DNA from: Pirellula staleyi DSM 6068
GTDB taxonomy: Bacteria; Planctomycetota; Planctomycetia; Pirellulales; Pirellulaceae
Direction of reading: 5' to 3'
Assembly: GCA_945875845.1 (NCBI GenBank)
Contig: CAMCMB010000009.1
Location: 1 to 64,000, forward strand
Length of the DNA stretch: 64,000 bases
Shown here: piece after piece, positions 15,832 through 58,629 of the stretch
Numbering within the stretch: the first letter of the stretch is position 1
How the letters are laid out: each line of letters starts with the position of its first letter
Notes under the pieces: generated by a model
What the model was told of the DNA's origin: nothing
The model's input: only the letters and a program-made list of their open reading frames with translations
The model's database searches: none
Translations under genes and position numbers: made by a program

Positions 15832-16566
15832 GAGTTGTTGGCCGGTTACTCCGGGCATGTGATGGCAGATTGTTACTCAGGCAACTTAAACGTAGTTCTT
15901 GATCCGAAGTCTTCGATGATTCGAATGGCTTGCTGGGCACATGCGCGCTGCAAGATCTTCGAAGCCAAAGATAACGACCGGACTGCCTCAGCGCTTCCAC
16001 TGGCGCTCATTGGTCAATTGTATGACATTGAACGATTGGCGATGGACTGGCCCAACGAGAAACGAACGGCGATACGTCAAAGCGATTCGCGATTAATCTT
16101 GGATCGATTGCGTAGTTGGCTGGATGGAGCGGTTGCAAAGAGCATTCTTCCTGCAAGCAAGCTTGGCCAAGCAGTTCAGTACATTCGCAATCATTGGGAT
16201 GCGCTTTGTGTTTACACCAATGATGGCCGTCTCCCAGTGGACAATAATTGGGTAGAGCGTCTCATGAAGCGGATCGCAATCGGAAGGAAAAACTGGCTTT
16301 TCGTCGGCTCGGTAAGGGCAAGCATGCGTAATGCAAACATCATGACGTTGGTAGCCAGCGCACATCGCCATGACCTCGACGTGCACATGTACCTGGTGGA
16401 CGTGATCACACACCTAAATCGAGGGACTGCCAAACCGGAGCAACTGCTTCCGGACGTATGGAAGGTGAGCCAACCAGAGGCAATTCGGTCGTATCGAGAA
16501 GAAAAGCGAGGAGACAAGGCCGAGTTAGCGAGGCTTCGTACCGCCTCTAGAGTTTCGCAGACTTAG
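15832..16566 (+). pseudogene. IS66-family transposase, C-terminal fragment
   Basis: About 244 codons matching only the C-terminal half of an IS66 TnpC transposase. It begins abruptly inside the catalytic domain (LLAGYSGHVMADCYSGN) and contains ACWAHARCKIFEA, VDNNWVERLMKRIAIGRKNW and LFVGSVRAS, with a normal C-terminus. The N-terminal leucine-zipper and zinc-binding parts and the accessory genes tnpA/tnpB are missing, and the first triplet of the open frame is only TTG. It is a dead element at the boundary of the accessory region. No inverted terminal repeat was found by eye. Confidence 0.88.
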
Positions 16567-16881
16567 GCACACGTCGGCTCGAATTGCCTGCCACCGTCGC
16601 AAAAATCCAAATCGATGGCTCTGTACGCTTACGTTTATCGGGTGAACGATGCATCAGCATTTGCCGTGCCGCTCGCTGTCGATGTCGATGTCGACCCTGA
16701 CCACGGTCCAACATTTGCTAACGAGTTTAACCGAGTGTCCGTCAAGCCGAGATTGGTAACCAACTGGGGCGCGAAGCGATGCAAACGCGGTTAAGCTCGC
16801 CGCCGCAACCATCGCTGGCTATGCTACTTTGCAAGTCGCCCGACATACAGTTCTCCCGAATCGTAAATTTGATGGGCATTC
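16567..16881. other. unassigned stretch after the IS66 fragment
   Basis: A 59-codon ATG frame at about 16614-16793 (+) begins MALYAYVYRV and contains a short GTCGAT direct repeat giving VDVDVD. It has no recognisable family and is probably debris. Confidence 0.35.
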
Positions 16882-16940
16882 CATGCGAGTCATTGTCACC
16901 GGCGGTTCACACGGACTCGGGCTGGGCATCCTCGCTTCTT
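16882..16940 (+). pseudogene. short-chain dehydrogenase (SDR) N-terminal scar
   Basis: The ATG at 16882 starts MRVIVTGGSHGLGLGIL, the TGxxxGxG cofactor motif that opens SDR proteins. After about 20 codons the frame runs into sequence that is the antisense of the receiver-domain fragment and stops. Only the first ~60 bases of the SDR gene remain. Confidence 0.6.
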
Positions 16941-17301
16941 TTAACGAACATTTTCCAACAATTCACGTATCGCACGGATGTCGGCAGGCTTGACCAAATG
17001 ATGGTCGAAACCTGCTTCAAGTGATTGCTGGCGATCGGCCTCACCACCATGTCCCGTTAGCGCAATCAGGATGACGACTTTGAGCATGGGCTCAAAGCGC
17101 ATTTGCTTTGCTACTTCAAGACCGCTCATGCCCGGCATCCTAATGTCCATCAGTATTACATTTGGCTGAAAGTCGAATGCCACTGAAATCGCAGTGCGCC
17201 CGTCTGACGCAGTTTGAACATCGTAGCCGGATGCTTTTAACAACGTCGAGAGCATGTGCCTCGCATCACGCATGGCGTCTACGATAAGGCGAGCGGCGGC
17301 C
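16941..17301 (-). pseudogene. response-regulator receiver domain, 5'-truncated
   Basis: About 120 residues of a receiver domain, probably the tail of a hybrid histidine kinase. The phosphoacceptor Asp is in VILMDIRMPGMSG, the conserved Thr in ALTGHGG, and the Lys in HHLVKP. The acidic pair that normally reads VDD is VDA here, so one metal ligand is lost. Upstream the frame runs without a break into the GTACTC repeat and then into meaningless sequence up to an ATG at 17582, so the kinase part has been replaced. The domain is probably inactive. Confidence 0.75.
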
Positions 17302-17342
17302 TGAAAACTACCTGAAATACGCAGTTCGATTTGACGAGCATT

Positions 17343-17444
17343 CGTACTCGTACTCAATCGCTTGCGATGGTACTCGTACTCGTACTCGAAGACAAGCGAT
17401 CGAGTACGAGTACCGCTTCGCTCAGTACGAGTACGAGTACGAAC
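17343..17444. repeat. nested inverted GTACTC/GAGTAC hexamer repeats
   Basis: Four arms built from the same hexamer: CGTACTCGTACTC (17343-17355), GGTACTCGTACTCGTACTCG (17369-17388), then the reverse complement CGAGTACGAGTACC (17401-17414), and a longer arm of GAGTAC units (17423-17444). Arms 1/4 and 2/3 can pair as a nested cruciform. On the minus strand it is translated as TRTRT and EYEYEY inside the open frame of the receiver fragment. Confidence 0.85.
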
Positions 17445-17611
17445 GGAGAGGTTTGCATGGTCTTTCGCGAGGCATGGCGCTGCTTTCATCGAGAATCGAT
17501 GAATATTGCTCTTTGTGAAAAAGCCAGGATATGTCAGGCTGGATTTATTCTGAATCCGTTTTTCAAGGAGGATTTTTTCCATGGATGGAACAGTCGACGA
17601 GTTGCTAGTTT

Positions 17612-18271
17612 TTGCGGCGAAGCACTCTACGCGATATTCTTAACCGCATGAACTATCGGCTAAAGCGCATTCAGAAAGGAAAACCATTGAAAAAGACAGA
17701 CAACACAACTCCCATTTTGGAAAACCTGCATGCGGCCCGCAATGAGGCAAAGGACGAACCGACAACCCTGGAAATTTCGGTTGATACCAGATCGAAGGTC
17801 AGTTTAGGCGAATACGTTCTCGGGGGGAAAAACCAGAACCGACAGCCAAGGTAACACCACAAGATTCGACGACTGCAGATCTATCTAGATAACGGACCAA
17901 AGAATTCAGGTCGCCGAACACAAATTCTAAAACGTATCGTTGAATTCAGGGACTGGTCAGGCTTAGAGATTCGTCTTGTTTACTATCCACCGTATCACAG
18001 CAAATACAATCCAATCGAGCGATGCTGGTCATCGTTGCAGAAAAAATGGAATGGCGTCTTGCTGACATGTTGGCAGGTCGTTCGAGTGTGCGCTTGGCGT
18101 ATGACTTGGAAAGGCCAGCATCCAAGCATTATTCGCGTGGAGGGAAACTACCCGACAGGTGTCATCGTGCCAAAACAAGAAATGAACGAAATCAACAAGC
18201 GGCTCATTCGCTCGGAAAAACTGCCGTCTTACGATATACTCATCATGCCGAAACGCCCACGCGGCAGGTAG
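17612..18271 (+). pseudogene. ISAzo13-family transposase with internal deletion and stop
   Basis: The first part (STLRDILNRMNYRLKRIQKG, PLKKTDNT, TLEISVDTRSKVSLGEY) and the last part (LDNGPKNSGRRTQ, VYYPPYHSKYNPIERCW, PTGVIVPKQEMNEINKRL) are typical of ISAzo13 transposases and lie in the same frame. A TAA at 17852-17854 separates them, and roughly 60-100 residues expected between GGK and LDNGP are missing. The start of the protein is also absent (the open frame begins at TTG 17612). No terminal repeats were found. It is a dead element. Confidence 0.82.
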
Positions 18272-18286
18272 GCTTCAGCCTGCCGC
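18261..18286. repeat. REP-like palindrome
   Basis: GCGGCAGG (18261-18268) pairs with CCTGCCGC (18279-18286) around TAGGCTTCAG. The core GTAGGCTTCAGCC resembles the arm core of the palindromes found inside the large gene at 43342. It overlaps the end of the ISAzo13 remnant. Confidence 0.75.
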
Positions 18287-18293
18287 TCGCCTA

Positions 18294-19145: not shown

Positions 19146-19196
19146 GGTCGAACGGTGAGCGATAGGCCACCGTGTCTGTCGCCGTGGCATGAAGAT

Positions 19197-19319
19197 CGCA
19201 CCTTGTTCAACCCTTTGGCACAAACCGAAACGGCCTGGCGATTGCTGCCGGTCTTGAAACCAAACTCTTCTGGCGCAAACGCAGCTTTGATCTTTGCCCA
19301 CGAGCGGCGGAAGATGTCA
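19197..19319 (-). pseudogene. collapsed DUF1592-gene scar (two non-adjacent segments joined)
   Basis: On the minus strand the first segment reads DIFRRSWAKIKAAFAPEEFGFKT and continues directly as GSNRQAVSVCAKGLNKVR. In the intact paralogue at 28357-32412 the matching peptides are IFRRSWAMIQGAPAPEEFG and VGSNRQVGSVSAKALNKVR, but they are about 565 bases apart. At the DNA level 19197-19250 matches 30947-31000 with four visible mismatches, and the following ~70 bases match from about 31570. The joint lies near 19250, with no obvious microhomology. Confidence 0.8.
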
Positions 19320-19341
19320 AGTGGTAGGGACGATTGATTTT

Positions 19342-20184
19342 TCAATTCGGGGCCTGCATCACGCAGTCCGCGTCCATCGGCACGGCGGGGCCGCTTGGAT
19401 CGACTGGATGTGTGAAGAGATAGCGCACCACATCATCGTAGAGCCACTGCCCGATGACGTCCTTGCCGCCGGGAACCACGACGGTGTGGGCACGGCCGCT
19501 GTTGTTTTTCACGTTGCTGTTGGTGATGAGACGGCGCGTGTTGCCATAGGGCGGTTTGGCATTGTCCACGTCCACCATGGAGCCGTGGTTGTGCAGTTTG
19601 AGCAATTGCCAGGAACGGCAGTAGTGATCGCCCACCCAGCCGCCATCGAGGATGTGCGTGAAGCCAAAGAAGCGATTCGAAGGCGTGGCGGAGGCCTCGC
19701 CCTGCCAGGTCTGCGTGTTGTCGCGCGGGCCGGAGAACATCACGACGCGGTCCACCTTTTGATGCATGGCGAAACGAGCCGCCGTGGTGCTGCCGTGCGA
19801 GATGCCGCTCAGGATGACCTTCTCCCATCGCAGTCCGGTGCCGTCCTCGTATTGCTCCTTGGTGACGCCTGCGAACCATCCGTTCGCGTAATGAGGCTGG
19901 ATGCCGTGGTAGCCATAGCTGGCCACTCGCTCGAATAGGCCCTGATTGTGTCCCATGAGCCAGATCACAAGCCTGCCCTGCGATGGCACGCGAGTATCCA
20001 CCACGGCATGCTGAAGCTCGGCGGGCTTTCCTTTGTCGTCAATGAAGGCAAACTTGATCTCGGGATGCTCTTTGGCCCGGGGATCGATCTCGCTGGCTCG
20101 CTTGGCGAGATCGTAGCGCTGAGGCGCATCGGAGGCATGGAGCTGGCTGGCGAGGAGAAGTGCGATGAGGAGGAGGTGCTTCAT
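19342..20184 (-). CDS. secreted alpha/beta-hydrolase-like protein (BPSS1187-type)
   Basis: 280 residues. Signal peptide MKHLLLIALLLASQLHASDA. A nucleophile elbow GISHG carries Ser129, and later segments (VVVPGGKDVIGQW) fit an alpha/beta-hydrolase fold. It resembles planctomycete/verrucomicrobial proteins annotated as BPSS1187 family; the family name is my recollection and the activity is unknown. Its ATG overlaps the stop of the collapsed sulfatase upstream (ATGA, 20181-20184), so it was the second gene of a sulfatase-hydrolase pair. A truncated copy of the same gene lies at 35884, after an intact sulfatase. Confidence 0.72.
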   Translation of the reverse strand: MKHLLLIALLLASQLHASDAPQRYDLAKRASEIDPRAKEHPEIKFAFIDDKGKPAELQHAVVDTRVPSQGRLVIWLMGHNQGLFERVASYGYHGIQPHYANGWFAGVTKEQYEDGTGLRWEKVILSGISHGSTTAARFAMHQKVDRVVMFSGPRDNTQTWQGEASATPSNRFFGFTHILDGGWVGDHYCRSWQLLKLHNHGSMVDVDNAKPPYGNTRRLITNSNVKNNSGRAHTVVVPGGKDVIGQWLYDDVVRYLFTHPVDPSGPAVPMDADCVMQAPN

Positions 20185-20427
20185 GGTGCTTTCTTTTTGG
20201 AGGGTGCTTTCGCTGGGTTGGCGGGATAGCGTTTGACTTCCACATCATTCTTCTGCACCGCGCCGGGCGTAGGGGTGTATTTCCAGCTGCCGCTGCGCAG
20301 CGCAGGGAGGACACGGCCCACGATGGCGTCGGTCTTCATGACGAAGTCGGCATAAAGATTCGGCCGCGTGCAGTGTAGCGAGTGTTGCCAGCAGCAGGCC
20401 GACAACGAGTGTGAGAGTGTGTTTCAT
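20181..20427 (-). pseudogene. collapsed sulfatase: signal peptide plus three short body segments
   Basis: The ATG at 20427 gives a signal peptide (LLLATLATLHAAES). In another frame three peptides follow without spacing: LYADFVMKTDAIVGRV, LRSGSWKYTPTPG and NDVEVKRYPANPAKAPSKKK. The intact sulfatase at 34290-35876 has LYADFVMETDAVVGRV, VRSGFWKYIPAPG and NDVEVVRYPAKADAKAK at about 35139, 35575 and 35796. So at least three deletions and one frameshift reduced about 1.5 kb to about 240 bases, while the start, the end and the ATGA overlap with the next gene were kept. Confidence 0.85.
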
Positions 20428-20478
20428 CGGAAGATTACTTGATAGAGGGCTTCTTGACGGGCGGATTTCCTGTTCAAG

Positions 20479-21789: not shown

Positions 21790-21883
21790 TCAAATGAGGT
21801 TCTGTTAGGTAAAATATGAATTACGTTTCATATTGAGAGGGTTCGGTGATTCGATAAGAGATGGCGGCAGGGCTATCCCGGTG

Positions 21884-25303: not shown

Positions 25304-25313
25304 GACAGTGGGG

Positions 25314-25341
25314 ATGAGGGGTGGGTAATGAGGGGTGGGTA
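25314..25341. repeat. 14-bp direct repeat, two copies
   Basis: ATGAGGGGTGGGTA occurs at 25314-25327 and 25328-25341, head to tail, in the 60-base gap between the PQQ-like gene and the DUF1592-SGNH gene. It looks like a slippage duplication. Confidence 0.85.
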
Positions 25342-25363
25342 AATTTCAGCTGAGGTTACGCCT

Positions 25364-28203: not shown

Positions 28204-28292
28204 AGGTCTAGTGTGGTGGGTGTTAAGGGTGGTGGGGTCTTGCGGAGTGAGGGGGCGAAGAGCGAGAGGAGGATGGCGATGGGTTTCATCAT
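28200..28292 (-). pseudogene. signal-peptide scar / 30-codon leader ORF
   Basis: The ATGATG at 28292-28287 opens [16 protein letters not shown] followed by [14 protein letters not shown] and a TGA. The first half is a plausible signal peptide and the rest is meaningless. The stop overlaps the DUF1552 start as ATGA. It fits the pattern of other scars in the window: a lost gene that keeps its start codon and its overlap with the next gene. It may still act as a translated leader. Confidence 0.5.
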
Positions 28293-33730: not shown

Positions 33731-34289
33731 ACATCCCTTATCGTTAAACGTCGCGCGGTAGCTACCTGCAACGATTTCCGTTGAGTTGGGGAGCGACGCG
33801 GTGACATGGCTCTACTGCGGACTAGTCGCCTTCTCAGGATATTCCGCAAACCGGTCCTGTGGTAACATATTTCCTGGAACTTTCATCGATGGCAAAGCCA
33901 ATTATCCATTATCGAAGGCCAAATCCTCTGGTTTTACAAAACTTTGAGGCTTGCGTTGTTACGCTAATCAGGGAATTAAATTCGGGACTGTTCCAAATCG
34001 GCAGGCGGCCAGCATTTGACGTCGTCCTACGGGCGAGGCCAACAGCCAAAAGAGACGACTGACTTGGGTGTCGTTCCCAAGATAGATGCGTTTGCCCATG
34101 CACCATGCGATACACGGATCATTCTCATCGCGAAGGATGCGCGTCTTTACAGACTCAGACCTTGGCCGAATCGCCACCGAGTTAGAGCGCGAGGTCAAGG
34201 CGGGCTCGAATACGTTTGACTTTGACTTGTCAACGGAAGGCGGTAGGGTGATAAATCGAAAGAACGGCCCAACAAATCAGGAATATACC
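33731..34289. other. divergent intergenic region with no recognisable gene
   Basis: About 560 bases between the sigma gene (-) and a sulfatase (+). Small open frames exist on both strands, but none resembles a known family. The open frame of the sulfatase reaches back to 34086 without a signal-peptide-like sequence until 34290. Promoters for both directions must lie here. Confidence 0.4.
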
Positions 34290-35883: not shown

Positions 35884-36054
35884 ATGAAATACATTCTCAT
35901 CACCACAATCCTCCTCGGCAGCCAGCTCCATGCTGCCGAGCCCCGCTGCTATGATCTCGCCAAACGGGCAAGCGAGATCGATCCCCGTGGTGCAATGCGG
36001 TGTCTTCAAAATGCCCATAGAATTATCAATGCTGTCTATTCTGCGCAGCAGTGA
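35884..36054 (+). pseudogene. BPSS1187-type hydrolase, N-terminal remnant
   Basis: The ATG at 35884 opens a signal peptide (ILITTILLGSQLHAAEP) and YDLAKRASEIDPR, matching residues 1-36 of the intact gene at 19342-20184. After DPR the sequence diverges (GAMRCLQNAHR) and stops at 36054. About 240 residues, including the GISHG nucleophile elbow, are missing. Confidence 0.85.
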
Positions 36055-38987: not shown

Positions 38988-38992
38988 TCACT

Positions 38993-42477: not shown

Positions 42478-42700
42478 TACTCAATTTCGCGATTCGGTTG
42501 GCTGGCGCTGTACTTGCCTGAGTTGTTTCCCACGCATGTGCGAGCTACAGGAAGTGGGCTGGCTTACAACTCGGGACGATTCGCGACCGCCGTCGGTGTA
42601 TTGCTGGCCGGTTTCCTTTTTTCCGCACTGGATGGCGACTACTCGCGAGTCGGTGCCTTGTGCGCGATCGTTTATGCCTTGGGCGCTTTGCCGATTGCCA
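42478..42700 (+). pseudogene. MFS transporter, C-terminal fragment
   Basis: Without a start, the frame reads YSISRFGWLALYLPELFPTH, then VRATGSGLAYNSGRFATAVG, and two hydrophobic segments to GALCAIVYALGALP. This is the end of a major-facilitator sugar or acid transporter (the YLPELFPT.VRATG motif). It runs in frame into the amidohydrolase remnant at 42727, so everything before the last two or three membrane helices is gone. Confidence 0.75.
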
Positions 42701-47370: not shown

Positions 47371-47374
47371 TTCT

Positions 47375-47505: not shown

Positions 47506-49011
47506 ATGAAGTCCATTTTCAGAATCGTCGCAGTACTGGTCGTCGTTTCAATCGCGCGACTGCATGCAGTAGAGCCGCGCCCGAACGTACTCTTCATCGC
47601 CGTGGATGATCTGCGAACCTCCCTCGGCTGCTATGGCGATACGCTGGTCAAATCACCGAACATCGACCGTTTCGCCACCACGGCCCGTCGCTTTGACCAT
47701 GCGTATACGCAGCAGGCAGTCTGCGGACCGTCACGCACATCGCTGCTCACTGGCCGGCTGCCAGACAACACGCGAGTCTGGCACAATCGGAATCTTTTTC
47801 GGGACACGCAGCCTGACATCATCACGCTGCCGCAGCTTTTCAAGAACCATGGCTATCACACCGTCTCGCTTGGCAAGATTTTCAGCGGCGATGAACGCGA
47901 ACTCGATCCCGTTTCCTGGTCCGAGCCGGAAATTCTCAAGCAGAAGGGATGGAGGAACTCCGCGCTCAGCGATTCCGGCGGCGAGGGCAAAGGCGCGGCA
48001 TGGGAAGCCGCCGATGTGCCGGACGAAGGCTACTCGGATGGCAAGCTGGCCAAGCTCGCGGCCGAAAAGCTTGCCAGCCTGCAGAGTAGCGGAAAGCCAT
48101 TTTTCTTAGCTGTGGGTTTCTTCAAGCCGCACCTGCCTTTCAATGCTCCGAAGCGTTATTGGGATCTCTACGATCCCGCGAGCTTCGAACTGAATGACGA
48201 CGGCCAGCGCGTGAAAGGCGTCTCCGAGCACGCTCACCACAGCCATCGCGAACTCGGCGGCTATCGTGACCTGCCGAAGGACGAGCACCTCGACGCCGCC
48301 ACCGCGCGCAAACTGCGTCACGGTTATCACGCCTGCGTGAGTTACACCGATGCGCAAATCGGAAAGCTGCTCACCGCGCTCGATCAGCTCGGCCTGACTG
48401 AGAACACCATCGTCGTGCTCTGGGGCGATCACGGCTTTGCCCTCGGCGAAAAAGACCGCTGGTGCAAAGGCACGAACTTCGAACGTGATACCCGCGTGCC
48501 GCTGCTTATCCGCACACCCGGCATGAAGGAACCCGGATCCGCTGCGGCGGGGCTCGTGGAAGTGGTGGACCTCTATCCCACGCTCGCCGAACTCGCCTCG
48601 CTTCCCGCGCCGCAGGGGCTCGATGGCCTCAGCCTCGTTCCGATCATCAACGATCCGCAGTCACCCGGTCGCGACGCGGTCCTCAGCCAGTTCGCCCGCC
48701 CCTTTAGCGCGAACACTCCCGAGTTCATGGGCTACTCCCTGCGCACCACGACTCATCGCTACACCCGCTGGATCGATTGGCAATCACGCAAGCTCGTCGC
48801 CGAGGAACTCTACGACTACACCACGGGCCCCAGCACTCGCCGCAAAGGCGCGTTGTGGATCGAAGAGGAAAACCTCGCCGCCCATCCCCAGCAAACGGAT
48901 TCCCGCCAGTCGCTGAGCCAAGAACTCGATCAGATGCTCTCCGAACGCATCACCGTGAAAGACCATGGGGAGCCAGCTACCAAAAAGAAACGGAAGAAGA
49001 AATCGCCATGA
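47506..49011 (+). CDS. sulfatase, iduronate-2-sulfatase-like
   Basis: 501 residues from ATG 47506; a GTG at 47494 is in frame, but the signal peptide (IFRIVAVLVVVSIARLHAVE) fits the ATG. Metal-site start NVLFIAVDDLRTSLGCYGD, complete motif CGPSRTSLLTGRLPDNTRVW, HTVSLGKIFSG, FFLAVGFFKPHLPFNAPKRYW, LWGDHGFALGEKDRWCKGTNFERDTRVPLL. These are iduronate-2-sulfatase-type features. The Lys-rich end KKKRKKKS matches other local sulfatases. The stop overlaps the ATG of a broken sulfatase (ATGA, 49008-49011), so an operon once continued downstream. Confidence 0.93.
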   Translation: MKSIFRIVAVLVVVSIARLHAVEPRPNVLFIAVDDLRTSLGCYGDTLVKSPNIDRFATTARRFDHAYTQQAVCGPSRTSLLTGRLPDNTRVWHNRNLFRDTQPDIITLPQLFKNHGYHTVSLGKIFSGDERELDPVSWSEPEILKQKGWRNSALSDSGGEGKGAAWEAADVPDEGYSDGKLAKLAAEKLASLQSSGKPFFLAVGFFKPHLPFNAPKRYWDLYDPASFELNDDGQRVKGVSEHAHHSHRELGGYRDLPKDEHLDAATARKLRHGYHACVSYTDAQIGKLLTALDQLGLTENTIVVLWGDHGFALGEKDRWCKGTNFERDTRVPLLIRTPGMKEPGSAAAGLVEVVDLYPTLAELASLPAPQGLDGLSLVPIINDPQSPGRDAVLSQFARPFSANTPEFMGYSLRTTTHRYTRWIDWQSRKLVAEELYDYTTGPSTRRKGALWIEEENLAAHPQQTDSRQSLSQELDQMLSERITVKDHGEPATKKKRKKKSP

Positions 49012-49380
49012 AAATTTCTATCGCCCTGGTCCTTGCTTTGCTGTTCGCGCCGCTGGCCGCGCTACGTGCCGCTGACTCGCGTCCCAGTATTATCTTCCTC
49101 TTCACAGATGACCAGACAGGAATTGGATCGTCAGGGACTCTCACAAAACACTTTAATCATTCTCACCTCTGACAATGGATATAACAGCGGCTCGCACGGC
49201 TTTGGCGACAAGGTCATCCCGTATGAAGAAGGCTACAAATCGCCGCTCATCATCTTCGATCCGCGATTGCCGAAGAATCATGCAGGTCAGGTGAGCGACT
49301 CCGTCACCGCCAATGTGGACATGACGGCGACGATCCTTGCTCTTGCAAACGTGCCCGGACCGGAGGATGCTTCACGTGTC
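49008..49380 (+). pseudogene. collapsed sulfatase: signal peptide joined to C-terminal third
   Basis: The ATG at 49008 gives a leader (LLFAPLAALRAADSRP) and SIIFLFTDDQTGI, the first metal-binding residues. Directly after, in the next frame, comes LDRQGLSQNTLIILTSDNGY, GFGDKVIPYEEGYKSPLIIF and TANVDMTATILALANVPGPE, the region after the DNG metal site. The formylglycine motif and about 250 residues are gone. The sulfatase text ends near 49380, where a beta-helix fragment begins. Confidence 0.82.
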
Positions 49381-49394
49381 CTATCACTGGCCAT

Positions 49395-49634
49395 CACGCA
49401 GGCTCGAAGTCTTTGGAATATGGCAAGACCGCATTGGAAACGCAGAAGAACTTGCGAGTCACCGGTGAAGACAATGTGTTAGAGCGACTGCTGATCGAAT
49501 GGGCAGTGGATGGAGCCCTGGAGGTCGAAGGCTCTGGTAATGTCATCGAAAAATACATCGTTCATGACACGAATCTGCACGGCCGACGTCCAGGGCCTGT
49601 ACACAAGCACGACCGGCGCTACGAAGACCAATAA
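49395..49634 (+). pseudogene. parallel beta-helix (pectate-lyase-like) protein, internal fragment
   Basis: Without its own start the frame reads LRVTGEDNVLERLLIEWAVD, GALEVEGSGNVIEKYIVHDT and NLHGRRPGPV, with the N-V-I-E ladder pattern of right-handed beta-helices, and then ends at TAA 49632-49634. It is the middle of a larger secreted protein. Pieces that could be the start and end of relatives lie at 51717 and 57198. Confidence 0.6.
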
Positions 49635-49680
49635 CCGCAGTTTCCCCAGATTCTTACCAGTCACAAGAAACCACCAATCG

Positions 49681-49900
49681 ATGAAGCGGATCCTGTTGCT
49701 GCTGACTACCCTGCTGCTTGCACCAGCAAGTGCACTTCACGCGGCAGACGCGTCGAAACCCACAGCCAAACCCAATATCGTCTTCATCCTCGCTGCCGGA
49801 TAAAACTGCGTCACTGCTCAAACAGCTTCGCCACTGGCGCACTCAAGTCGGCGCAGCCAGCCGTTACGAAAACGCTGACGACCACTCTTCTGATTCAGAC
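49681..49900 (+). pseudogene. collapsed sulfatase: signal peptide joined to last helix
   Basis: The ATG at 49681 opens LLLLTTLLLAPASALHAADA and KPNIVFIL, the start of a sulfatase, and stops at 49801-49803. In another frame the sulfatase C-terminal helix follows at once (LPDKTASLLKQLRHWRTQVGA). More than 400 residues are missing. The rest, to 49985, has no recognisable content. Confidence 0.75.
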
Positions 49901-49985
49901 CGGAGTGTCTGTCTGGACAGTTGCAATTGCAGTTTGTGGTGGAAGCAGATGAGCTGATTATCGTCGAGGGCAGACTGACGTAGAA

Positions 49986-51140
49986 TTATCTCTCGCCTGA
50001 TGTGAGACTGCGGCGATAGTTTCCGGGCGTGACTCCAATCGTTTTGCGGAACACTTCCAGCATGTACTGCGACGTTGTAAAGCCGGTACGAGCAGCGATC
50101 TGATCGAGGCTCAGGTCGGTATCTCGCAGCAGGTTGCAGACCTGTTCGATGCGCACGCGAACGATCTCTTCGTTGGGAGACCTTCCCAACCATCGCCGAC
50201 AACTCCGTTCCAAAGTGCTTCGCGAAATCGGAACAACCTTGAGGACTCCATTGACGGTCAGGCCCTCACACGCACGCTGGCGAATCAATCGAATGGCTTG
50301 TGCCAGATGTTCGTCATCAATCGCCACGATGTCCGAGGATTGACGCGTCTCGATGCAGAGCGGAGCAAAGAGTGTCGGCTGCGCCGGCAGCTTCAGACGA
50401 CGCATCATACGATCCAGAATTCGCGCGGCTTCGTAGCCTATCTGTTCGCCGGCCAAACGCACGCTGCTCAGCGGCGGTGTGCTCATGGTGGCAATGGTCT
50501 CGTCGTTCTCGACCCCGACGATAGCGACATCTTCTGGAACACGGATTGACGAGCGAGAGCAGGCGTCCAACAGCCAGCAACCAAGCTGATCCGTGCAGGC
50601 CATAATCGCAGTCGGTCGCGGTAGGCCGCTGAGCCAGTTCATCAGTCTTTTCTGCTGCGCCTCCCACTGTTCTGGCTTCTCCGACTTGCCGGGCTGACGA
50701 AGCACCGAACACGCATGTCCGCGTGCTTGCAGATAGTCGACAAAACTCTCGCGGCGTTCGATAAAGAAGGGCTCGGCATCGAGCGCAAACACGCCGAAGT
50801 GACGGAAGCCTCGCTCAAGAAAATGGTCGGCAACCATCGATGCAACGACCATGTTATCCACCCCGACAAATGGGAAAGTGGAACCGCGGCGCGTCGATCG
50901 CAATTCGACAGCAGGCACACCCGCACTTTTAACAGACGCAGCGATCGCAGCGCTGCCCGATCGAGTCAGGATTCCATCGCCGTCCCAGTTTCTCAGCCAA
51001 ACCGGTGGCATGGTTTCCAGGTCTCTAATCTCCACAAACAACGACCAAGGCCCATGCTCATGCGCATAGCGTTTTACACCGCGCAGCAGGTCACGACCGT
51101 AAGTGCGTGAGGTTTCAATGAGGAGAGCAACGCGACGCAT
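49986..51140 (-). CDS. XylR-like transcriptional regulator: LacI-type sensor plus AraC HTH
   Basis: 384 residues. Residues 1-270 form a periplasmic-binding-protein-like sensor (VALLIETSRTYGRDLLRGV, FVGVDNMVVASMVADHFLERGF, PTAIMACTDQLGCWLLDACS, SSVRLAGEQIGYEAARIL). The last ~100 residues are an AraC/XylS DNA-binding domain with two helix-turn-helix units (LKVVPISRSTLERSCRRWLG and LSLDQIAARTGFTTSQYMLEVFRKTIGVTPGNYR). This is the layout of E. coli XylR, which senses a sugar and activates transcription. It is divergent from the sugar-isomerase remnant at 51270, so its original target may be broken; the sialidase operon beyond is another candidate. Confidence 0.92.
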   Translation of the reverse strand: MRRVALLIETSRTYGRDLLRGVKRYAHEHGPWSLFVEIRDLETMPPVWLRNWDGDGILTRSGSAAIAASVKSAGVPAVELRSTRRGSTFPFVGVDNMVVASMVADHFLERGFRHFGVFALDAEPFFIERRESFVDYLQARGHACSVLRQPGKSEKPEQWEAQQKRLMNWLSGLPRPTAIMACTDQLGCWLLDACSRSSIRVPEDVAIVGVENDETIATMSTPPLSSVRLAGEQIGYEAARILDRMMRRLKLPAQPTLFAPLCIETRQSSDIVAIDDEHLAQAIRLIRQRACEGLTVNGVLKVVPISRSTLERSCRRWLGRSPNEEIVRVRIEQVCNLLRDTDLSLDQIAARTGFTTSQYMLEVFRKTIGVTPGNYRRSLTSGER

Positions 51141-51269
51141 TGGCGAATTCCAAGTGAATCATGGCTGACAATAGAGTGTAACCGAATTACGCAAATACGG
51201 AATGTGAATGAATCTCTTTGGTGGTAAAGTATTTTAAGCTTCAGTCTGGTATTCACTTAGGAGCTCAAC
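51141..51269. promoter_or_regulatory. divergent control region of the XylR-like regulator
   Basis: About 130 bases between the regulator (-) and the isomerase remnant (+). AT-rich in the middle (TTTGGTGGTAAAGTATTTTAAG near 51217). A ribosome-binding-like AGGAG lies about 6 bases before the ATG at 51270. The operator cannot be identified by eye. Confidence 0.4.
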
Positions 51270-51700
51270 ATGTCGGATTCATCGCTTTCTCGAAGAGGCT
51301 TCATCGCTTCGACGCTGGCAGGCGGCTCGCTGCTGGGGAACTCGCTTTCAGGAGTTTTCTCATCGCCAGCGTGTGCCACGGCGTCGAAATCCCAGCGCGA
51401 GCCGGAATCGTGAAAGGTCTGCGCATGGCGACAGTGGCAAAGTGCAAGTTCGACCTCGAAGTCTGCGGCGGCATCTACGTCAGCGAGCCGTGCGTGATCG
51501 ATCGACACATGGTCAGCGGTCGCACGGACTACGTCCAGTATTTCTCTCTGTTGAAGCAACATGGCTACACCGGACCAGTCTGCGTCGAGGTCAGTGGTCA
51601 AGTCTTCAGCAAGCCCAGCTACGACCCAATCGCCGCAGCCAAGCAGTGCCATGAAACGTTGTCCGTTGCGCTGGCAAAGGCATTCCACTCGAACAATTGA
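51270..51700 (+). pseudogene. collapsed TIM-barrel sugar isomerase/epimerase: Tat leader joined to C-terminus
   Basis: The ATG at 51270 gives a twin-arginine leader (LSRRGFIASTLAGGSLLG) and a stop after 47 codons (TGA near 51409-51411). In another frame the last ~90 residues of a xylose-isomerase-like TIM-barrel protein follow: KCKFDLEVCGGIYVSEPC, DYVQYFSLLKQHGYTGPVCVE, YDPIAAAKQCHETLS. The catalytic middle of about 150-200 residues is absent. It was presumably the gene controlled by the divergent XylR-like protein. Confidence 0.75.
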
Positions 51701-51716
51701 AGAGCGATCAGCGAAC

Positions 51717-51959
51717 ATGAAACTCACCCTCATCACCCTCACCGCCCTCACCGCCCTCACCGCCCTGCTGCTCGCGATGGTCGCTGCACTGCACGCCGCG
51801 CCATCCCCAGACTCTCGCATCGTCATCGCCAGCGAGGCGGGTGCGAAGCTCGACAGCGACGTCACCACCGGCGGAGGAACCGACGACACGGCGCTCATCC
51901 AATGCATCCTCGACCGGGAACCGAAGATCATTCAACCCCAGCAACCTCCTTCAAACTGA
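51717..51959 (+). pseudogene. N-terminal fragment of a secreted beta-helix/polysaccharide-active protein
   Basis: 80 codons from ATG 51717. The signal peptide contains a 9-base slippage repeat (LTALTALTALLLAMVAALHAA). Then SRIVIASEAGAKLDSDVTTG and GGTDDTALIQCILDREPK follow, an N-terminal module typical of pectate-lyase/polygalacturonase-like proteins (the TDDTALIQ pattern), and the frame ends within 15 residues. It would be part of a protein several hundred residues long. Confidence 0.6.
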
Positions 51960-51970
51960 ACCCACTGATC

Positions 51971-53227: not shown

Positions 53228-53245
53228 ACCCACAAGGATTTTTAA

Positions 53246-54520: not shown

Positions 54521-54521
54521 T

Positions 54522-57179
54522 ATGCCACGAAGTTTTCAGAACAATGATGCCGAAGGTATCTCGATAGTAGCAGGCACACTCCGTGTGCCGTCCGCTGTTC
54601 AGCGATTCGTCGTTCAAACACGTTTGAATTTTTGGGCTACGGTACACGGAGTGTGCCTGCTACTTTGTTCCACAGCCCTGCCTGCAGCGGACGAGACGCA
54701 GGTCAAACCCGATGCGTTCCTTTCGCGTTATTGCCTCGGTTGCCATGGCACCAACGAACAAAAAGGAGATCGTCGGTTCGATAATCTACCTACCACGGTC
54801 GGCGTCGATGTCGCGATTGGGGAACGTTGGCAGGAGGTGTTGCATCAGTTGCAACTCGGTGAAATGCCGCCATCCGATGAGCAGCAACCAACCGATGACG
54901 AACGCCGCTCCGTGATCGCATGGATTGAGGCGCAGGTCACCCAAGCGCAGACAATCGCTCAAGACCGCGGCGGACAAGTTGTCCATCGTCGGCTGAATCG
55001 CGTTGAGTATCGGAACACCATAAAAGACCTCTTCGGGTTCGAGGGTGACTTTGATCCGACGACTAGTTTTCCCGGCGATGAGGAACTGGAGGGCTTTCGC
55101 AACGTGGGGTCCGCTTTACGAACTTCACGACATCATGTTGAGCAGTATTTGAAGGCCGCGGATTTGGTGCTCCAACAAGCGTATGATCTTGCCGATGTTG
55201 ATGGGACGCCCAAGGTGCAGGAATGGAAGGACAGCGCGGACGACAGACGTGGACTCAACGACGCCTTCGGGCTTGGCGTCATCAGTGAAGAGAAAGCCAA
55301 AGGCCCTGCGTATATTCACCTTAGTCATGGTCTGCGAAATCAAGAGCTGATCTTCGACAGCAAACTTTTCCTCAGCAAACTAGGTGACACGGGCGTGCCG
55401 CACTCCGGGTGGTATGACGTCGAAGTCGAAGCTACTGCTGCAAATCGCCATCATCCCTATGGCAAGGATCTCATGCTTGGTGGTATGTCAGCGTATTACA
55501 AAGACCTGAAGGCCTACTACGACGAATCGCAGCCGATGCAGCTTGGTATTGGCAGACAAGGCGAAGGAGTGAAAGGCAACGGCTGGCGGCTGATTCCTCC
55601 CAACATCGTTCACGCCACCGAACTACCCGATGATCGCTACGTTACCGTTCGCGCCCCCGTTTGGCTTGATCGCGGAACCGTCCCCTACCTCGCGTGGATC
55701 GACGGACCGCCGAAAGGGACACGCAGCCAATTCATTTCGACCAAGCTCTATAAGTACGACTCCAGCGTGCCGAAGATCGAGAAGCATATTTGGGGAAATC
55801 TCGCCCTGCGTGCCGAACGCGACAAACTCTACCAACATCTTTACCAAGGCCCCGAAATCCGTGTCCGCTACTGGCAAGTCACTGGTCCGATGCACGATGA
55901 CAAGCCGCATCGTTCTCGGTCGCTGCTGTTTGAGAACATGAAGCCCGACGAAAAGCAAATCGACGATGCCCGACTGCAAGCCGAACTTCAGCGACTCGCC
56001 AGTCGTCTCTTTCGTCGCGAGGTGGGCAGCGAAGACATCGCCCCCTATGTGAGCGCCGTGAAGAATCGTCTCGATGGCAAAACACGTTATGCCGACGCTG
56101 CACGACCCGTCTTCAAAGCCATGCTCTGCTCGTCAGAGTTCTTGTTTCTGACCGAGCCACAAACAGACGCGAAGGCCATCACGCCGATGCAGTTGGCCAC
56201 TCGACTCTCTTACTTCCTCACCGCCGGTCCACCGGATGACGAACTCCGCTCGCTGGCGCGTAAAGGTTGGCTCGATGCGGTAGCCATTCGCAAAGAAACC
56301 GACCGCATGCTTGACTCATCGCGCGGCGATCGATTCCTGCGGCTGTTCACTGAGCAGTGGCTCGGCTTGAACAAGCTCGGCACGATGCCACCAGCCAAGG
56401 AAACTTTTTCGTCTTATCACATCGATCGCCTCGAGCCCGCGATGAAGGAAGAAACATGGCGTTTCATCGCTGAGCTCATTCGCACCAATCAGCCTGTTGC
56501 GGCACTCGTCGATACGGACTTCACTTACGTCAATGCAGGCCTCGCGCGGCTCTACGAACTACCCGAGGTTCGCGGCGATCGCTTACAACGCGTCAGCTTG
56601 CCCGATGATTCACCACGCCGCGGATTGCTGGGCCATGCAAGCGTTCTCACGATCACAGCCAACGGAGTCGAGACTTCACCGGTAACGCGTGGTGTCTGGT
56701 TGCTTGAAAAGCTTTTCGGAACACCGCCCAGTCCACCGCCACCGGACGTACCGTCCATCGAGCCCGACATTCGCGGCGCCACGACAATCCGTCAGCAGTT
56801 GGAAAAGCATCGCAATGTTCAGGCCTGTGCCGACTGCCACGCCAAGATCGATCCGCTCGGCTACGCCCTCGAAGCCTATGACCCCATCGGCCACTTCCGC
56901 AGCGCCTACCCAAACGGAGCCGCCATCGACACCACCGGCGAGTACCGCGGCCAAACCATTAGCAGTCCCGCCGACATCCGAAGCTATCTCGTAGATCACC
57001 CCGAGCTGCTCGCGCACAACCTTGCCCACCGTCTCCTCACCTACGCCCTCGGCCGCCCGCTCGGATTCGCTGACCAACCCGCTCTTCGCAGACTGCAATC
57101 CGATTGGAAGGCGAAGAACTACACCCTCCGCGAACTCATCCACCTCATCGCCATCAGCGATCTGCTGCATCAGCCCTAA
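54522..57179 (+). CDS. DUF1587/DUF1592/DUF1588 cytochrome-like protein, palindrome in leader
   Basis: 885 residues from ATG 54522, one base after the previous stop codon. The leader is long: a palindrome at 54567-54663 is translated inside it, and the hydrophobic stretch ATVHGVCLLLCSTALPAADE serves as signal peptide. Then a PSCyt1-like haem site YCLGCHGTNEQKGDRRF, DUF1587 (VVHRRLNRVEYRNTIKDLFG), DUF1595/1592 (TRLSYFLTAGPPDDELRSL, YELPEVRGDRLQRVSLPDDS PRRG) and DUF1588/1585 with a complete haem site, CADCHAKIDPLGYALEAYD. In contrast to the chimera at 28357, this copy shows what the full family looks like. Probably a periplasmic electron-transfer or oxidative enzyme; the reaction is unknown. 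Confidence 0.85.
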   Translation: MPRSFQNNDAEGISIVAGTLRVPSAVQRFVVQTRLNFWATVHGVCLLLCSTALPAADETQVKPDAFLSRYCLGCHGTNEQKGDRRFDNLPTTVGVDVAIGERWQEVLHQLQLGEMPPSDEQQPTDDERRSVIAWIEAQVTQAQTIAQDRGGQVVHRRLNRVEYRNTIKDLFGFEGDFDPTTSFPGDEELEGFRNVGSALRTSRHHVEQYLKAADLVLQQAYDLADVDGTPKVQEWKDSADDRRGLNDAFGLGVISEEKAKGPAYIHLSHGLRNQELIFDSKLFLSKLGDTGVPHSGWYDVEVEATAANRHHPYGKDLMLGGMSAYYKDLKAYYDESQPMQLGIGRQGEGVKGNGWRLIPPNIVHATELPDDRYVTVRAPVWLDRGTVPYLAWIDGPPKGTRSQFISTKLYKYDSSVPKIEKHIWGNLALRAERDKLYQHLYQGPEIRVRYWQVTGPMHDDKPHRSRSLLFENMKPDEKQIDDARLQAELQRLASRLFRREVGSEDIAPYVSAVKNRLDGKTRYADAARPVFKAMLCSSEFLFLTEPQTDAKAITPMQLATRLSYFLTAGPPDDELRSLARKGWLDAVAIRKETDRMLDSSRGDRFLRLFTEQWLGLNKLGTMPPAKETFSSYHIDRLEPAMKEETWRFIAELIRTNQPVAALVDTDFTYVNAGLARLYELPEVRGDRLQRVSLPDDSPRRGLLGHASVLTITANGVETSPVTRGVWLLEKLFGTPPSPPPPDVPSIEPDIRGATTIRQQLEKHRNVQACADCHAKIDPLGYALEAYDPIGHFRSAYPNGAAIDTTGEYRGQTISSPADIRSYLVDHPELLAHNLAHRLLTYALGRPLGFADQPALRRLQSDWKAKNYTLRELIHLIAISDLLHQP
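54567..54663. repeat. REP-type palindrome GTAGCAGGCACACTC..., paired arms inside a coding leader
   Basis: GTAGCAGGCACACTCCGTGT begins at 54567, and its inverted partner CACGGAGTGTGCCTGCTAC ends at 54663; each arm is also a short hairpin by itself (GGCACAC/GTGTGCC). It lies within the first 50 codons of the DUF1592 gene and contributes VAGTLRVPS and GVCLLL. Confidence 0.88.
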
Positions 57180-57197
57180 AACTGGATTCTCATCACT

Positions 57198-57487
57198 ATG
57201 AAACCCACCAACATCATCCTCAGTGCCCTGATGTTAGCCCTGTTAGCCACGCTGGCACCGCTAGCAAGGTTCGCAATGTCGATATCGGAAGCCACAATAC
57301 TTTCATAAACAATGCCGCGCAGAAAGTTGGCCCGCATCCGGTGACGGCTGCGATTACAGTGATGCAATGGCCGGAGTTTCATGCATGGGGTAGCCCTATC
57401 GATGCCGACACCGCGACAAGAGTCAAAGCCACCGCCGGAATCGAACCGGCCTACATTGACATCAAACGCGATTTGGAAAGCAGCTAA
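57198..57487 (+). pseudogene. collapsed secreted beta-helix protein: signal peptide joined to C-terminus
   Basis: The ATG at 57198 gives MKPTNIILSALMLALLATLA and stops near 57308. In a shifted frame KVRNVDIGSHNTFINNAAQK, ITVMQWPEFHAWGSPIDADT and ATAGIEPAYIDIKRDLESS continue to TAA 57485-57487, the end of a secreted, probably beta-helix, protein. The middle is missing. It ends about 10 bases before the first RAYT-associated repeat. Confidence 0.6.
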
Positions 57488-57495
57488 CAACCATG

Positions 57496-57664
57496 GAGCA
57501 AACAAAGATGTCAGGAGCAAACAAAGATGTCAGGAGTCCTTGATTTATGATCACGTCTGTGTTGACGTGCTGAACTGCTTGGACCAGACCGAGCCGACGC
57601 ACCAAATAAGGACTACTGACACTTTTGTTTGTTTCAACAAAGACTCCTGACACCTTTGTTTGTT
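57496..57664. repeat. RAYT-associated REP repeats, left side
   Basis: GGAGCAAACAAAGATGTCA is repeated head to tail (57496-57514, 57515-57533). Facing copies follow: CTGACACTTTTGTTTGTTT (about 57616-57634) and a hairpin AACAAAG-N15-CTTTGTTTGTT (57636-57664). The left copies are the reverse complement of the right ones with one or two changes. Confidence 0.88.
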
Positions 57665-57669
57665 CGCAG

Positions 57670-58362
57670 ATGCCTAGACCAAAACGAGCCGACGAAGCCT
57701 ACTGCCTTTACCACGCTTTGAACCGAGGGAACGCGAAGAGCGATATCTTCAAAAAGGATGAGGATTTCCATGCTTTCGAGCGAATCCTCGCCCAAGGTTT
57801 GGAGCGATACCCTTGCCAAATTTTGGCTTACCAATTGATGTCCAATCACTGGCATTTTGTACTGCGACCGACCGAAGACGGGGGCATGAGCAACTTTTTG
57901 CGTTGGGTTACCTTGACGCATACGCAACGCTATCACGCCCACTACGGGACTTCCGGAGAAGGACATGTTTACCAAGGTCGCTTCAAAAGCTTTCCGATCC
58001 AAGACGATGAACATTTTTTTGTGGTTGCGCGGTATGTTGAGCGCAACGCACTGCGAGCCAACTTGGTCGATCGTGCCCAGCAGTGGCGATGGGGTTCGCT
58101 CTACCGGTGGCTAACCACCCCTGAACCAGACCCTCGACTGCTTTCTGCATGGCCGCTTGCCCGTTTGCCTAACTGGGTGAACCGTGTCAATGAACCGCTG
58201 ACAGAAAAGGAACTTGAGGCAGTACGTTGGAGTATCAAACGGGGAAGTCCATTTGGAAACGAAACATGGGTGGAGTCCATTGCTCGCCGCTTCGGTCTCG
58301 AATCGACCTTACGACCACGCGGACGCCCTCAAGTACGCAACTTACCAAACAAAGACTCCTGA
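57670..58362 (+). CDS. REP-associated tyrosine transposase (RAYT, IS200/Y1-like)
   Basis: 230 residues from ATG 57670. HUH motif HWH with H60 and H62 (LMSNHWHFVLRP), the catalytic Tyr most likely Y122 (VARYVERNALRANLV), plus HVYQGRFKSF and WRWGSLYRW, all typical of RAYTs. These single-strand nucleases bind and cut REP hairpins. Repeats with AACAAAG...CTTTGTT arms lie on both sides (57496-57664 and 58348-58376), and the last one overlaps the end of the gene. The protein looks intact, so it may act on these repeats. It sits between two broken genes. Confidence 0.93.
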   Translation: MPRPKRADEAYCLYHALNRGNAKSDIFKKDEDFHAFERILAQGLERYPCQILAYQLMSNHWHFVLRPTEDGGMSNFLRWVTLTHTQRYHAHYGTSGEGHVYQGRFKSFPIQDDEHFFVVARYVERNALRANLVDRAQQWRWGSLYRWLTTPEPDPRLLSAWPLARLPNWVNRVNEPLTEKELEAVRWSIKRGSPFGNETWVESIARRFGLESTLRPRGRPQVRNLPNKDS

Positions 58363-58376
58363 CACCTTTGTTTGTT
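58348..58376. repeat. RAYT-associated REP repeat, right side
   Basis: AACAAAG, the 15-base spacer ACTCCTGACACC-like, then TTTGTTTGTT: the same sequence as 57636-57664, in direct orientation. It contains the final codons of the RAYT gene (NKDS, stop) and forms the junction with the broken sulfatase on the other strand. Confidence 0.88.
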
Positions 58377-58379
58377 CCG

Positions 58380-58629
58380 TCATCGCAGCGGTGCGACTCG
58401 GTGAACAGACGGGATTGAGTACGTTGAACTGCTGAAAGTCGATCCCTTCGCGCGCCAGCCGATCGAGGTTCGGCGTCTTCAGCCACGGATGCCCATGGCA
58501 CGACAAATCACCCCAGCCCCAGTCATCGGCGAAAATAAAGACGATGTTGGGCTTCGACGTCTCGGCGGCATTCAGTGTCGCCAGCGGCGCGAGCAGCAGC
58601 GCCGTCACAAGTGTGATTGTGTTTTTCAT
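58380..58629 (-). pseudogene. sulfatase N-terminal fragment cut at the active-site motif by the RAYT element
   Basis: The ATG at 58629 opens a leader (TALLLAPLATLNAAETS), PNIVFIFADDWGWGDLSCHG, TPNLDRLAREGIDFQQF and the motif CSPSRTAAMT. At the next codon the frame passes into the REP repeat (EQTKVSGVFVW) and stops at 58342. The remaining ~400 residues are not found on the other side of the RAYT gene, so insertion was accompanied by a deletion. The intact relative at 62313-63728 has the same start region. Confidence 0.88.

What the first reader, a model, noticed from the sequence alone, without database searches (positions are those of the whole stretch)
15832..58629. A gene graveyard in which decayed genes keep start and signal peptide but lose the middle
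At least a dozen remnants share one form: start codon and leader kept, body deleted, and often a short end kept (20181-20427, 35884-36054, 49008-49380, 49681-49900, 51270-51700, 51717-51959, 57198-57487, 58380-58629, 28200-28292). Several keep their ATGA overlap with a living neighbour. Random decay should erode starts as easily as middles. Possible causes: selection to keep translational coupling to the next gene; deletion between repeated domains of paralogues; or an assembly that collapsed paralogues. If real, this is an unusual mode of turnover of secreted polysaccharide-degrading genes.
Basis: partly seen in the sequence, partly recalled or inferred. Interest (0 to 1): 0.8.

Follow-up and report, generated by a model that had tools for sequence, protein, structure and literature searches.

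The report
Signal-peptide cassettes and their scars
Most of the broken genes in this planctomycete appear to be leftovers of secreted-enzyme genes that bacteria of several phyla seem to swap as cassettes joined at one shared stretch of DNA, the sequence that codes for the signal peptide.

Summary
Eight of the nine named remnants hold up; 28200-28292 does not. The stated rule (starts kept, middles lost) is weaker than claimed: I count 8 pieces with a start and 12 without (4 of these weak), and a single large deletion confined between living neighbours keeps the leader 57-70% of the time in a simulation. Coupling and assembly collapse are not supported.

The surprise is the leader. Six scars begin with copies, two of them diverged, of one ~69-nt DNA module (MKxTLTLLTALLLAPLAALHAAD); no living gene of the window scores above zero. 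The module recurs in MAGs of Verrucomicrobiota, Lentisphaerae and Planctomycetota, before unrelated enzymes and often in head-to-tail arrays. Its synonymous codons are conserved; the DNA on either side is unrelated. Homology blocks between genomes start at it in 77% of comparisons, against 30% for other genes. In recently shared cassettes the first 24 nt of the leader are no more alike than between strangers, while its last third follows the body: crossovers lie inside the leader. I infer cassette exchange by homologous recombination there; 11-bp spacers leave no room for attC. The window is the decaying edge of such an array. Enzyme and transfer route are unknown; by title all found records are MAGs or uncultured.

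The parts
20356..20427 (-). Module leader of a dead sulfatase cassette (scar 1)
   Evidence: PWM 59.0 bits; HMM E 4.8e-8
20181..20355 (-). Middle and tail pieces of the same kind of sulfatase, ending in ATGA overlap with 19342-20184
   Evidence: blastx to G024 C104 residues 284-304 and 497-513/518
35884..36054 (+). Leader and first 37 codons of a paralogue of 19342-20184 (not the module), then weak foreign tail
   Evidence: blastx 65%; PWM -77.5
49008..49105 (+). Module leader of a dead sulfatase
   Evidence: PWM 36.2; HMM E 9.9e-8
49106..49634 (+). C-terminal third of a sulfatase, out of frame with the leader
   Evidence: Pfam Sulfatase 222-301/301; blastx to 49413; rest by ORF only
49681..49803 (+). 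Diverged module leader and sulfatase N-terminus (KPNIVFILA)
   Evidence: PWM 13.6, below the cut-off of 20 used elsewhere; HMM E 1.3e-6
49804..49900 (+). Sulfatase tail, other frame
   Evidence: read by eye
51270..51366 (+). Tat leader of a Gfo/Idh-type gene (not the module); intact copy on contig C22
   Evidence: 97.4% over 502 bp
51362..51526 (+). Piece of a PfpI-like gene
   Evidence: 86.7% to L194; blastx 94% to C4 residues 153-206/229
51511..51700 (+). Tail of an isomerase-like gene
   Evidence: 71.6% to L194 over 51511-51643; rest by ORF
51717..51959 (+). Module leader with a short in-frame expansion, plus about 50 codons of a lyase-like gene
   Evidence: PWM 24.1 at 51735, -59.5 if scored without a gap from 51717; 84% to G060 C112
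57198..57487 (+). Diverged module leader directly behind the PSD gene; living cassettes with other bodies at this site in G060 and G024
   Evidence: PWM 6.2; synteny
58378..58629 (-). Module leader and N-terminus of a sulfatase, cut by an IS200-like element
   Evidence: PWM 66.2; blastx 70% to G016 C80 544-aa gene
57625..58362 (+). IS200-like Y1 transposase
   Evidence: Pfam PF01797 E 3e-13
54522..57179 (+). Living PSD/PSCyt gene, 79% in DNA to the gene just before the first leader of a verrucomicrobial array contig
42493..42696 (+). Tail-only remnant (residues 341-408/419), no start kept: counter-example
   Evidence: blastx 92.6%
19187..19318 (-). Internal pieces of a PSD-type gene (or a repeat shared with it), no start kept
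33998..34135 (-). Internal piece (residues 194-239/305), no start kept: counter-example
15835..16566 (+). IS66 transposase without its N-terminal part
   Evidence: Pfam 122-281/284

Best explanation
The window holds the decaying edge of a cassette array of secreted-enzyme genes. In bacteria of the Planctomycetota-Verrucomicrobiota-Lentisphaerota group these genes are joined head to tail by one shared ~69-nt DNA module that begins at the start codon and codes for the signal peptide. Shown: the module is conserved at DNA level, has sharp edges and sits before unrelated bodies; homology blocks between genomes start at it; the upstream DNA and the first third of the leader do not travel with the body. 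Inferred: the module is the crossover site, so that a body (with its short 3' spacer and the next start) recombines in behind any resident leader and is at once in frame with a start and a signal peptide. The enzyme is probably the cell's homologous recombination machinery rather than a dedicated recombinase. In the window's Pirellula-like genome most such cassettes have died by short-homology deletions and an insertion element. What is left is often the leader, sometimes a tail or a middle piece. Leaders look over-represented because edges survive between living genes and because leaders are easy to recognise; no selection for keeping them is needed.
For: Module: a scan of the genome collection (one genome for each of 84,980 species) with a pattern open at synonymous sites gave 66 copies in 63 stretches. 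61 bodies fall into 29 clusters. Over 1,667 pairs from different clusters identity is 82% in the leader (raised by the bases that the pattern fixes), 27% upstream, 29% downstream. Third-position identity at same-residue codons, which the pattern leaves free, is 63.5% against 38.7% expected from codon usage and 34% for non-module genes (six residues only). Leu5/7/8 are CTC in 156 of 167, Leu11/12/16 CTG in 155 of 193. Arrays: 56, 57, 20 and 28 matches at E<=0.01 in four genomes; one contig has 21 matches, 19 with ATG, in 45 kb, all on one strand. Exchange: 5' block ends lie at -15..+75 for 77% of 140 leader-gene comparisons (68 genes) against 30% of 240 (125 genes); 4% against 32% run >100 bp upstream; by gene 48/68 v 32/125. 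Restricted to genes whose start is pinned by a neighbour's stop: 82 of 103 v 29 of 83, by gene 35/50 v 13/40, Fisher 6e-4. In 25 pairs with bodies >=88% identical the leader is 73.5, 83.3 and 78.9% identical in nt 1-24, 25-48 and 49-69; 12,460 stranger pairs give 73.4, 79.2 and 61.2%: the first third is decoupled from the body, the last third follows it. L193 and L223 differ at 8 sites in nt 7-24 of the ORF and then at none until nt 1202; their upstream DNA is unrelated. Arrays of G147, G191 and G060 hold the same cassettes at 89-98% in different orders, broken at leaders. Window: 6 module leaders, all on dead genes; its DNA matches verrucomicrobial cassettes.
Against: By their titles all 63 stretches come from MAGs, bins or uncultured organisms, and a repeated module is where assemblers may mis-join. 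Against that: a collinear 7.5-kb block over five leaders in two assemblies, two-cassette order kept between G062 and L230 at 87%, a 613-kb contig with two module copies. Leaders within a genome are no more alike than between genomes (0.706 v 0.717), which does not show local homogenisation. No crossover was observed in action and no recombinase is tied to the arrays. The leaders at 35884 and 51270 are not the module; 49681 and 57198 score below the cut-off of 20 used elsewhere. A living sulfatase (47506, score -20.3) lies above the shuffled maximum and 40501 has a similar-looking leader, so living distant kin exist in the window. The 3' side is weaker: 65% of 63 leader-gene blocks followed by a leader gene end inside it, but so do 42% of 50 for other genes. 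Gene starts come from my own simple gene finder, pairs are not independent, and without the pinned-start control the contrast is inflated.
Confidence: 0.7

Rival explanations
1. Ordinary pseudogene decay seen through a biased eye: deletions in an accessory island, with leaders noticed because they are recognisable. The shared leader is just a common signal peptide with no role.
For: Geometry alone keeps leaders in 57-70% of large single deletions. Tail-only and middle-only remnants exist in the window. In G016 C352 a PSD gene survives at most as two short middle pieces, one of which may be a dispersed repeat.
Against: Sufficient for the scars, but not for a 69-nt DNA module shared by unrelated genes across phyla, nor for block ends and decoupling at that module.
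Confidence: 0.15
2. Integron cassettes: the arrays are moved by an integron integrase at attC sites.
For: Integrase TIGR02249 over its cut-off in 5 of 6 genomes tested, the window's own included; a broken integrase-like stretch (70 bits, below the cut-off of 265) lies on the scar-bearing contig C22.
Against: G060, with 56 leader matches, has none over the cut-off, and the integrases over the cut-off are not on contigs with listed leader matches (the list is cut). Median spacer between stop and next leader is 11 bp, with no room for attC. Block ends lie at or inside the coding leader, not in a spacer.
Confidence: 0.05
3. Assembly artefact: contigs of different organisms mis-joined at a repeated leader, and scars made by collapse of paralogues.
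For: By title all found records are MAGs, bins or uncultured; long identical stretches of the module could mislead short-read assemblers.
Against: Three resolved scar junctions share about 2-5 bases. Multi-cassette order recurs in independent assemblies at 87-98%. The contig G018 C111, with four leader matches, also carries DNA matching G014, whose same stretch matches G020 and the window's own contig.
Confidence: 0.08
4. RNA-level constraint: the leader DNA is conserved because the first 69 nt act as a translation or regulatory element, and horizontal transfer merely spreads it.
For: Position-specific synonymous codons and an A/C-rich start context at -4 to -1.
Against: Does not explain why the first third of the leader is decoupled from the body while the last third follows it. 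No unusual DNA folding of the sense strand (z -0.01; reverse strand z -2.1); RNA folding was not tested.
Confidence: 0.1
5. Leaders are kept by selection for translational coupling to the next gene.
For: ATGA overlaps at 20184 and 49008; the scar at 51717 ends about 12 nt before the next start.
Against: 49681, 57198 and 58629 have no living same-strand gene to couple to; leader and tail frames differ at three scars.
Confidence: 0.03

Closest known systems
Integron gene-cassette arrays
   Same: Head-to-tail arrays of single genes, shuffled between genomes, joined at a conserved short sequence.
   Different: The joint is coding (start codon and signal peptide), not an attC site behind the gene; the spacer is about 11 bp; no integrase over the cut-off on contigs with listed leader matches.
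Surface-antigen families with a conserved leader and recombination (mycoplasma vsp/vsa, Borrelia vls; recalled)
   Same: DNA-conserved 5' end with variable downstream part, exchanged by recombination.
   Different: Those bodies are of one family in one species (recalled); here they are unrelated enzymes in several phyla.
Conotoxin and frog-skin peptide precursors (recalled)
   Same: Signal peptide strongly conserved while the mature part diverges.
   Different: There one gene family diversifies; here different families sit behind one leader.
PSD/PSCyt and sulfatase gene islands of planctomycetes
   Same: Gene content of the window.
   Different: No living gene of the window scores above 0 as a module leader.

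Membership tests
Integron cassette array | attC site between genes | tested here: not met
   Only indirectly: median spacer stop to next leader 11 bp; attC models themselves were not searched
Integron cassette array | Integron integrase in the genome and at the array | tested here: not met
   None over cut-off in G060; in five others on other contigs than the listed leaders; a broken sub-cut-off match on the own contig C22
Integron cassette array | Head-to-tail single-gene cassettes shuffled between genomes | tested here: met
Ordinary pseudogenes from deletion | Intact homologue exists and the remnant lacks an internal stretch | tested here: met
   Four cases looked at: 51270 (C22, L194), 20181 (G024), 51717 (G060), BNR in G016
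Ordinary pseudogenes from deletion | Little homology at junctions | tested here: met
   3 of 4 aligned junctions resolve to about 2-5 shared bases by eye; the fourth is unresolved
Antigen-variation cassettes with conserved leader | Bodies of one family | tested here: not met
   61 bodies, 29 clusters, the largest 16; of 10 bodies scanned 8 have a Pfam family at E<=0.01, all different
Cassette exchange by homologous recombination at the leader | Breakpoints at or within the leader | tested here: met
Cassette exchange by homologous recombination at the leader | Dependence on RecA or another recombinase | not testable with these tools
   needs an experiment
Curated N-terminal sorting signal family | A Pfam or NCBIfam model covering residues 1-23 | tested here: not met
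   10 leader proteins, no model confined to the leader; one match far below its cut-off (PelZ) starts at residue 6

The most novel reading that the evidence does not exclude
A cross-phylum gene-cassette system in which the recombination joint is the signal-peptide coding sequence itself. Any captured body lands in frame behind a start codon and an export signal, so PVC-group bacteria shuffle their secretomes leader to leader, without attC sites. Leader-only scars are empty or half-emptied slots of that system.
Probability: 0.65. Interest if true: 0.92.

Novelty: categorically new. Interest (0 to 1): 0.82.

Why it matters
It would be a second way, besides integrons, to build and trade gene-cassette arrays, with the joint doing double duty as an export signal. 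It gives a concrete route by which polysaccharide-degrading enzymes could cross phyla, and it makes leader-anchored gene capture directly testable. For annotation it warns that leader-only ORFs in such genomes can be array remnants rather than small secreted peptides.

Tried and rejected
A blastx census of own-genome intergenic DNA (about 1 Mb of 7.0) gave 14 N-terminal, 7 C-terminal and 5 middle pieces, but several N-terminal hits were a dispersed repeat or small paralogues, so I did not use that tally as evidence either way. A PSCyt2 search gave 75 matches in the own genome, one of them a short broken fragment. The sulfatase search gave 57 matches covering 1-257 or more of 301 positions and five fragments over the cut-off, two of them in the window; two of the five begin at position 1. 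One of the two longer-frame module leaders of the own genome (C1:200905) heads a sulfatase that matches only 1-257/301 and may be truncated too. A pairwise search for deletions gave mostly repeats and whole-gene absences; I used individual cases only. Translational coupling, integron, assembly collapse: see rivals. DNA folding of the module: nothing on the sense strand. The leader pattern in IMG/VR viral contigs: 0; the BNR protein there: no relative. still held overlapping loci of the same genomes (225 of 698 ends near a leader, 18.8 expected); one search is the cleaned rerun, with 15 loci dropped and longer blocks required. In one search non-leader starts are predicted and less exact than leader starts, which inflates the contrast; one search is the control for that. 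I first wrote that leaders of shared cassettes are no more alike than those of strangers; over all 69 nt they are a little more alike (78.6 v 71.7%), and only nt 1-24 are equal. The count of short-frame leaders uses three own contigs and fetched stretches, not whole genomes. Searches scored only part of the candidates in some genomes and cut their lists, so copy numbers are lower bounds. Papers: seven searches, of which I saw listings and abstract starts only; the peptide strings occur in no held paper, and no listed title or abstract start describes such a module. The library is open-access only.


Full report
What the window is. It is the first half of contig C9 (127,586 bp) of a 7.0-Mb, 149-contig genome. 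Its gene content is planctomycete: sulfatases, PSD/PSCyt proteins, DUF1501/1552, BNR proteins. One relative of the same genus, G016, has a contig with the length and leader position of a record titled Pirellula sp. Tobar2m-G36, so I call the genus Pirellula-like.

The scars. Reading all frames and comparing with 1,142 proteins from fetched parts of the own genome and relatives, eight of the nine named remnants hold up. The best resolved is 51270-51700: the same promoter and leader at 97.4% identity on contig C22 open an intact 440-aa gene, while the window runs into a PfpI-like and an isomerase-like piece that are intact, in this order, in an Opitutae MAG (L194). In G016 a BNR gene that is intact in the window is reduced to leader and tail, and the gene before it to a leader and a few bases. 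In an Opitutaceae MAG (L230) the same BNR gene is cut by a repeat-bearing element. Of four junctions aligned, three share about 2-5 bases and one is unresolved; that is too few for assembly collapse.

Is the start specially kept? Not by this evidence. My tally in the window is 8 pieces with a start and 12 without, four of the 12 weak; five of the 12 stand alone. If a deletion is confined between living neighbours, the ends are what survives: 70% leader, 69% tail, 0% middle for single deletions that leave at most 30%, and 57%, 57%, 0% for at most 20%.

The leader module. The leaders of most scars resemble each other in DNA from the start codon on, while the DNA before them does not. A profile of nine leaders found nine matches in the own genome at E up to 1, seven of them in open frames of at most 167 aa. 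A scan of the genome collection, open at synonymous sites, returned 66 copies in 63 stretches, by their titles mostly Verrucomicrobiota, also Lentisphaerae and Planctomycetota, all MAGs, bins or uncultured; many names point to lakes and ponds, which I infer and did not check. The bodies fall into 29 clusters of 61; ten scanned ones include a sulfatase, a GH5 enzyme, a carbohydrate esterase, a ThuA protein, a PQQ propeller, a pyruvyl transferase-like protein and DUF4838, and two have no Pfam family. Over pairs of unrelated genes identity is 82% inside the 69 nt, partly because the pattern fixes bases, and 27-29% outside. Third positions, which the pattern leaves free, agree in 63.5% of same-residue codons against 38.7% expected and 34% among other genes. 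Leu5, 7, 8 are CTC in 156 of 167, Leu11, 12, 16 are CTG in 155 of 193. This looks like one DNA sequence, not convergence of signal peptides.

Arrays and exchange. Four genomes hold 56, 57, 20 and 28 matches at E up to 0.01; of 288 genomes sampled from one order, 53 have at least one at E up to 1e-5. The copies sit in runs: one contig has 21 matches, 19 of them with ATG, in 45 kb on one strand. I compared contigs of different genomes by blastn. For leader genes the homology block begins at the leader in 77% of 140 comparisons; for other genes in 30% of 240. Only 4% against 32% extend more than 100 bp upstream. By gene it is 48 of 68 against 32 of 125. Because non-leader starts are predicted, I repeated this with genes whose start is pinned by the stop of the gene before: 82 of 103 against 29 of 83, and 3 against 26 extend upstream. 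Thirty-nine directed blocks run from one leader to the next, some between Verrucomicrobiota and Planctomycetota (G018 C111 against G060 C112, 80.6%).

Where the crossover lies. In 25 pairs of cassettes with bodies at least 88% identical, the leader is 73.5% identical in nt 1-24, 83.3% in nt 25-48 and 78.9% in nt 49-69. For 12,460 pairs of strangers the values are 73.4, 79.2 and 61.2%. The first third of the leader thus belongs to the place and the last third to the body. L193 and L223 show it in one case: eight differences in nt 7-24, none from there to nt 1202, unrelated DNA upstream. Arrays of G147, G191 and G060 hold the same cassettes at 89-98% in different order, with breaks at leaders, while G147 and G191 share 7.5 kb collinearly.

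Back to the window. All six module copies head dead genes. Five are the only ATGs of 2,132 that score above zero, though 49681 (13.6) and 57198 (6.2) fall below the cut-off of 20 that I used elsewhere; the sixth, 51717, has a short in-frame expansion and scores 24 when read past it. A living sulfatase at 47506 scores -20.3, above the shuffled maximum, and may be a distant copy. The window's PSD gene is 79% identical to the gene before the first leader of a G060 array contig; behind it G060 and G024 have living leader genes with different bodies, the window has the scar at 57198, and G016 has a leader cut after about 27 nt. Short-frame leaders (under 100 codons) are 4 of 6 on three own contigs, 2 of 11 in fetched stretches of other members of the genus and 9 of 166 in array contigs. 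In this genome the cassettes are mostly dead.

Mechanism. I infer homologous recombination at the leader. An integron is unlikely: spacers of 11 bp, no integrase over the cut-off in G060, none over the cut-off on contigs with listed leaders elsewhere; a broken sub-cut-off match on the own contig C22 is the one result that points the other way. A viral carrier was not seen with this pattern. How DNA moves between phyla is unknown. The main weakness is that all found records are MAGs, bins or uncultured by title; long reads decide.

Noticed in passing
28360-32412 (-): One 1351-aa ORF joins PSD domains, cut at position 70/98 of PSCyt3, in frame to a DUF1552 protein from position 88/307: looks like a gene fusion made by a deletion.
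   Followed up: no
49986-51368 and G000 C22 46636-47137: Complementary loss after a duplication: the window keeps the AraC/XylR-like regulator and lost the Gfo/Idh-type gene; C22 keeps that gene and has only the regulator's first 91 codons.
   Followed up: partly
57560-58380; L230 1-350: An IS200-like element with short end repeats (TGTCAGGAGTC) cuts a module-led sulfatase here, and another repeat-bearing stretch cuts a BNR gene in L230.
   Followed up: no
L244 7420, L251 1835, L243 3592: Three orphan leaders in one genome are each followed by the same ~115-bp spacer and then a complete leader gene.
   Followed up: partly
G014 C1 4569-4638, G016 C352 14236-14295, G023 C57 14514-14600, G024 C146 upstream of 15121: Short tandem repeats of the type GAACCAAGAAC lie directly before the leader start in four relatives.
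   Followed up: no
G000 C2 55713, C22 22224 (contig coordinate), C47 5079, C7 94190, C1 143271: A dispersed repeat (TTGGATATTCACCGGGCGGCTCGCGCCGCTCCGCTACGAAAACATTGG...) that can be mistaken for a gene start.
   Followed up: no
G000 C83:27887-28837 and four other genomes; G000 C22:73310-74032: Integron integrases over the curated cut-off in the window's genome, G018, G061, G062 and G063; a broken, sub-cut-off one on C22.
   Followed up: no
G023 C57 16595-21412 and G020 C26 2793-6584: Homologous proteins of 1605 and 1263 aa differ by a block of about 1,025 bp (342 codons).
   Followed up: no
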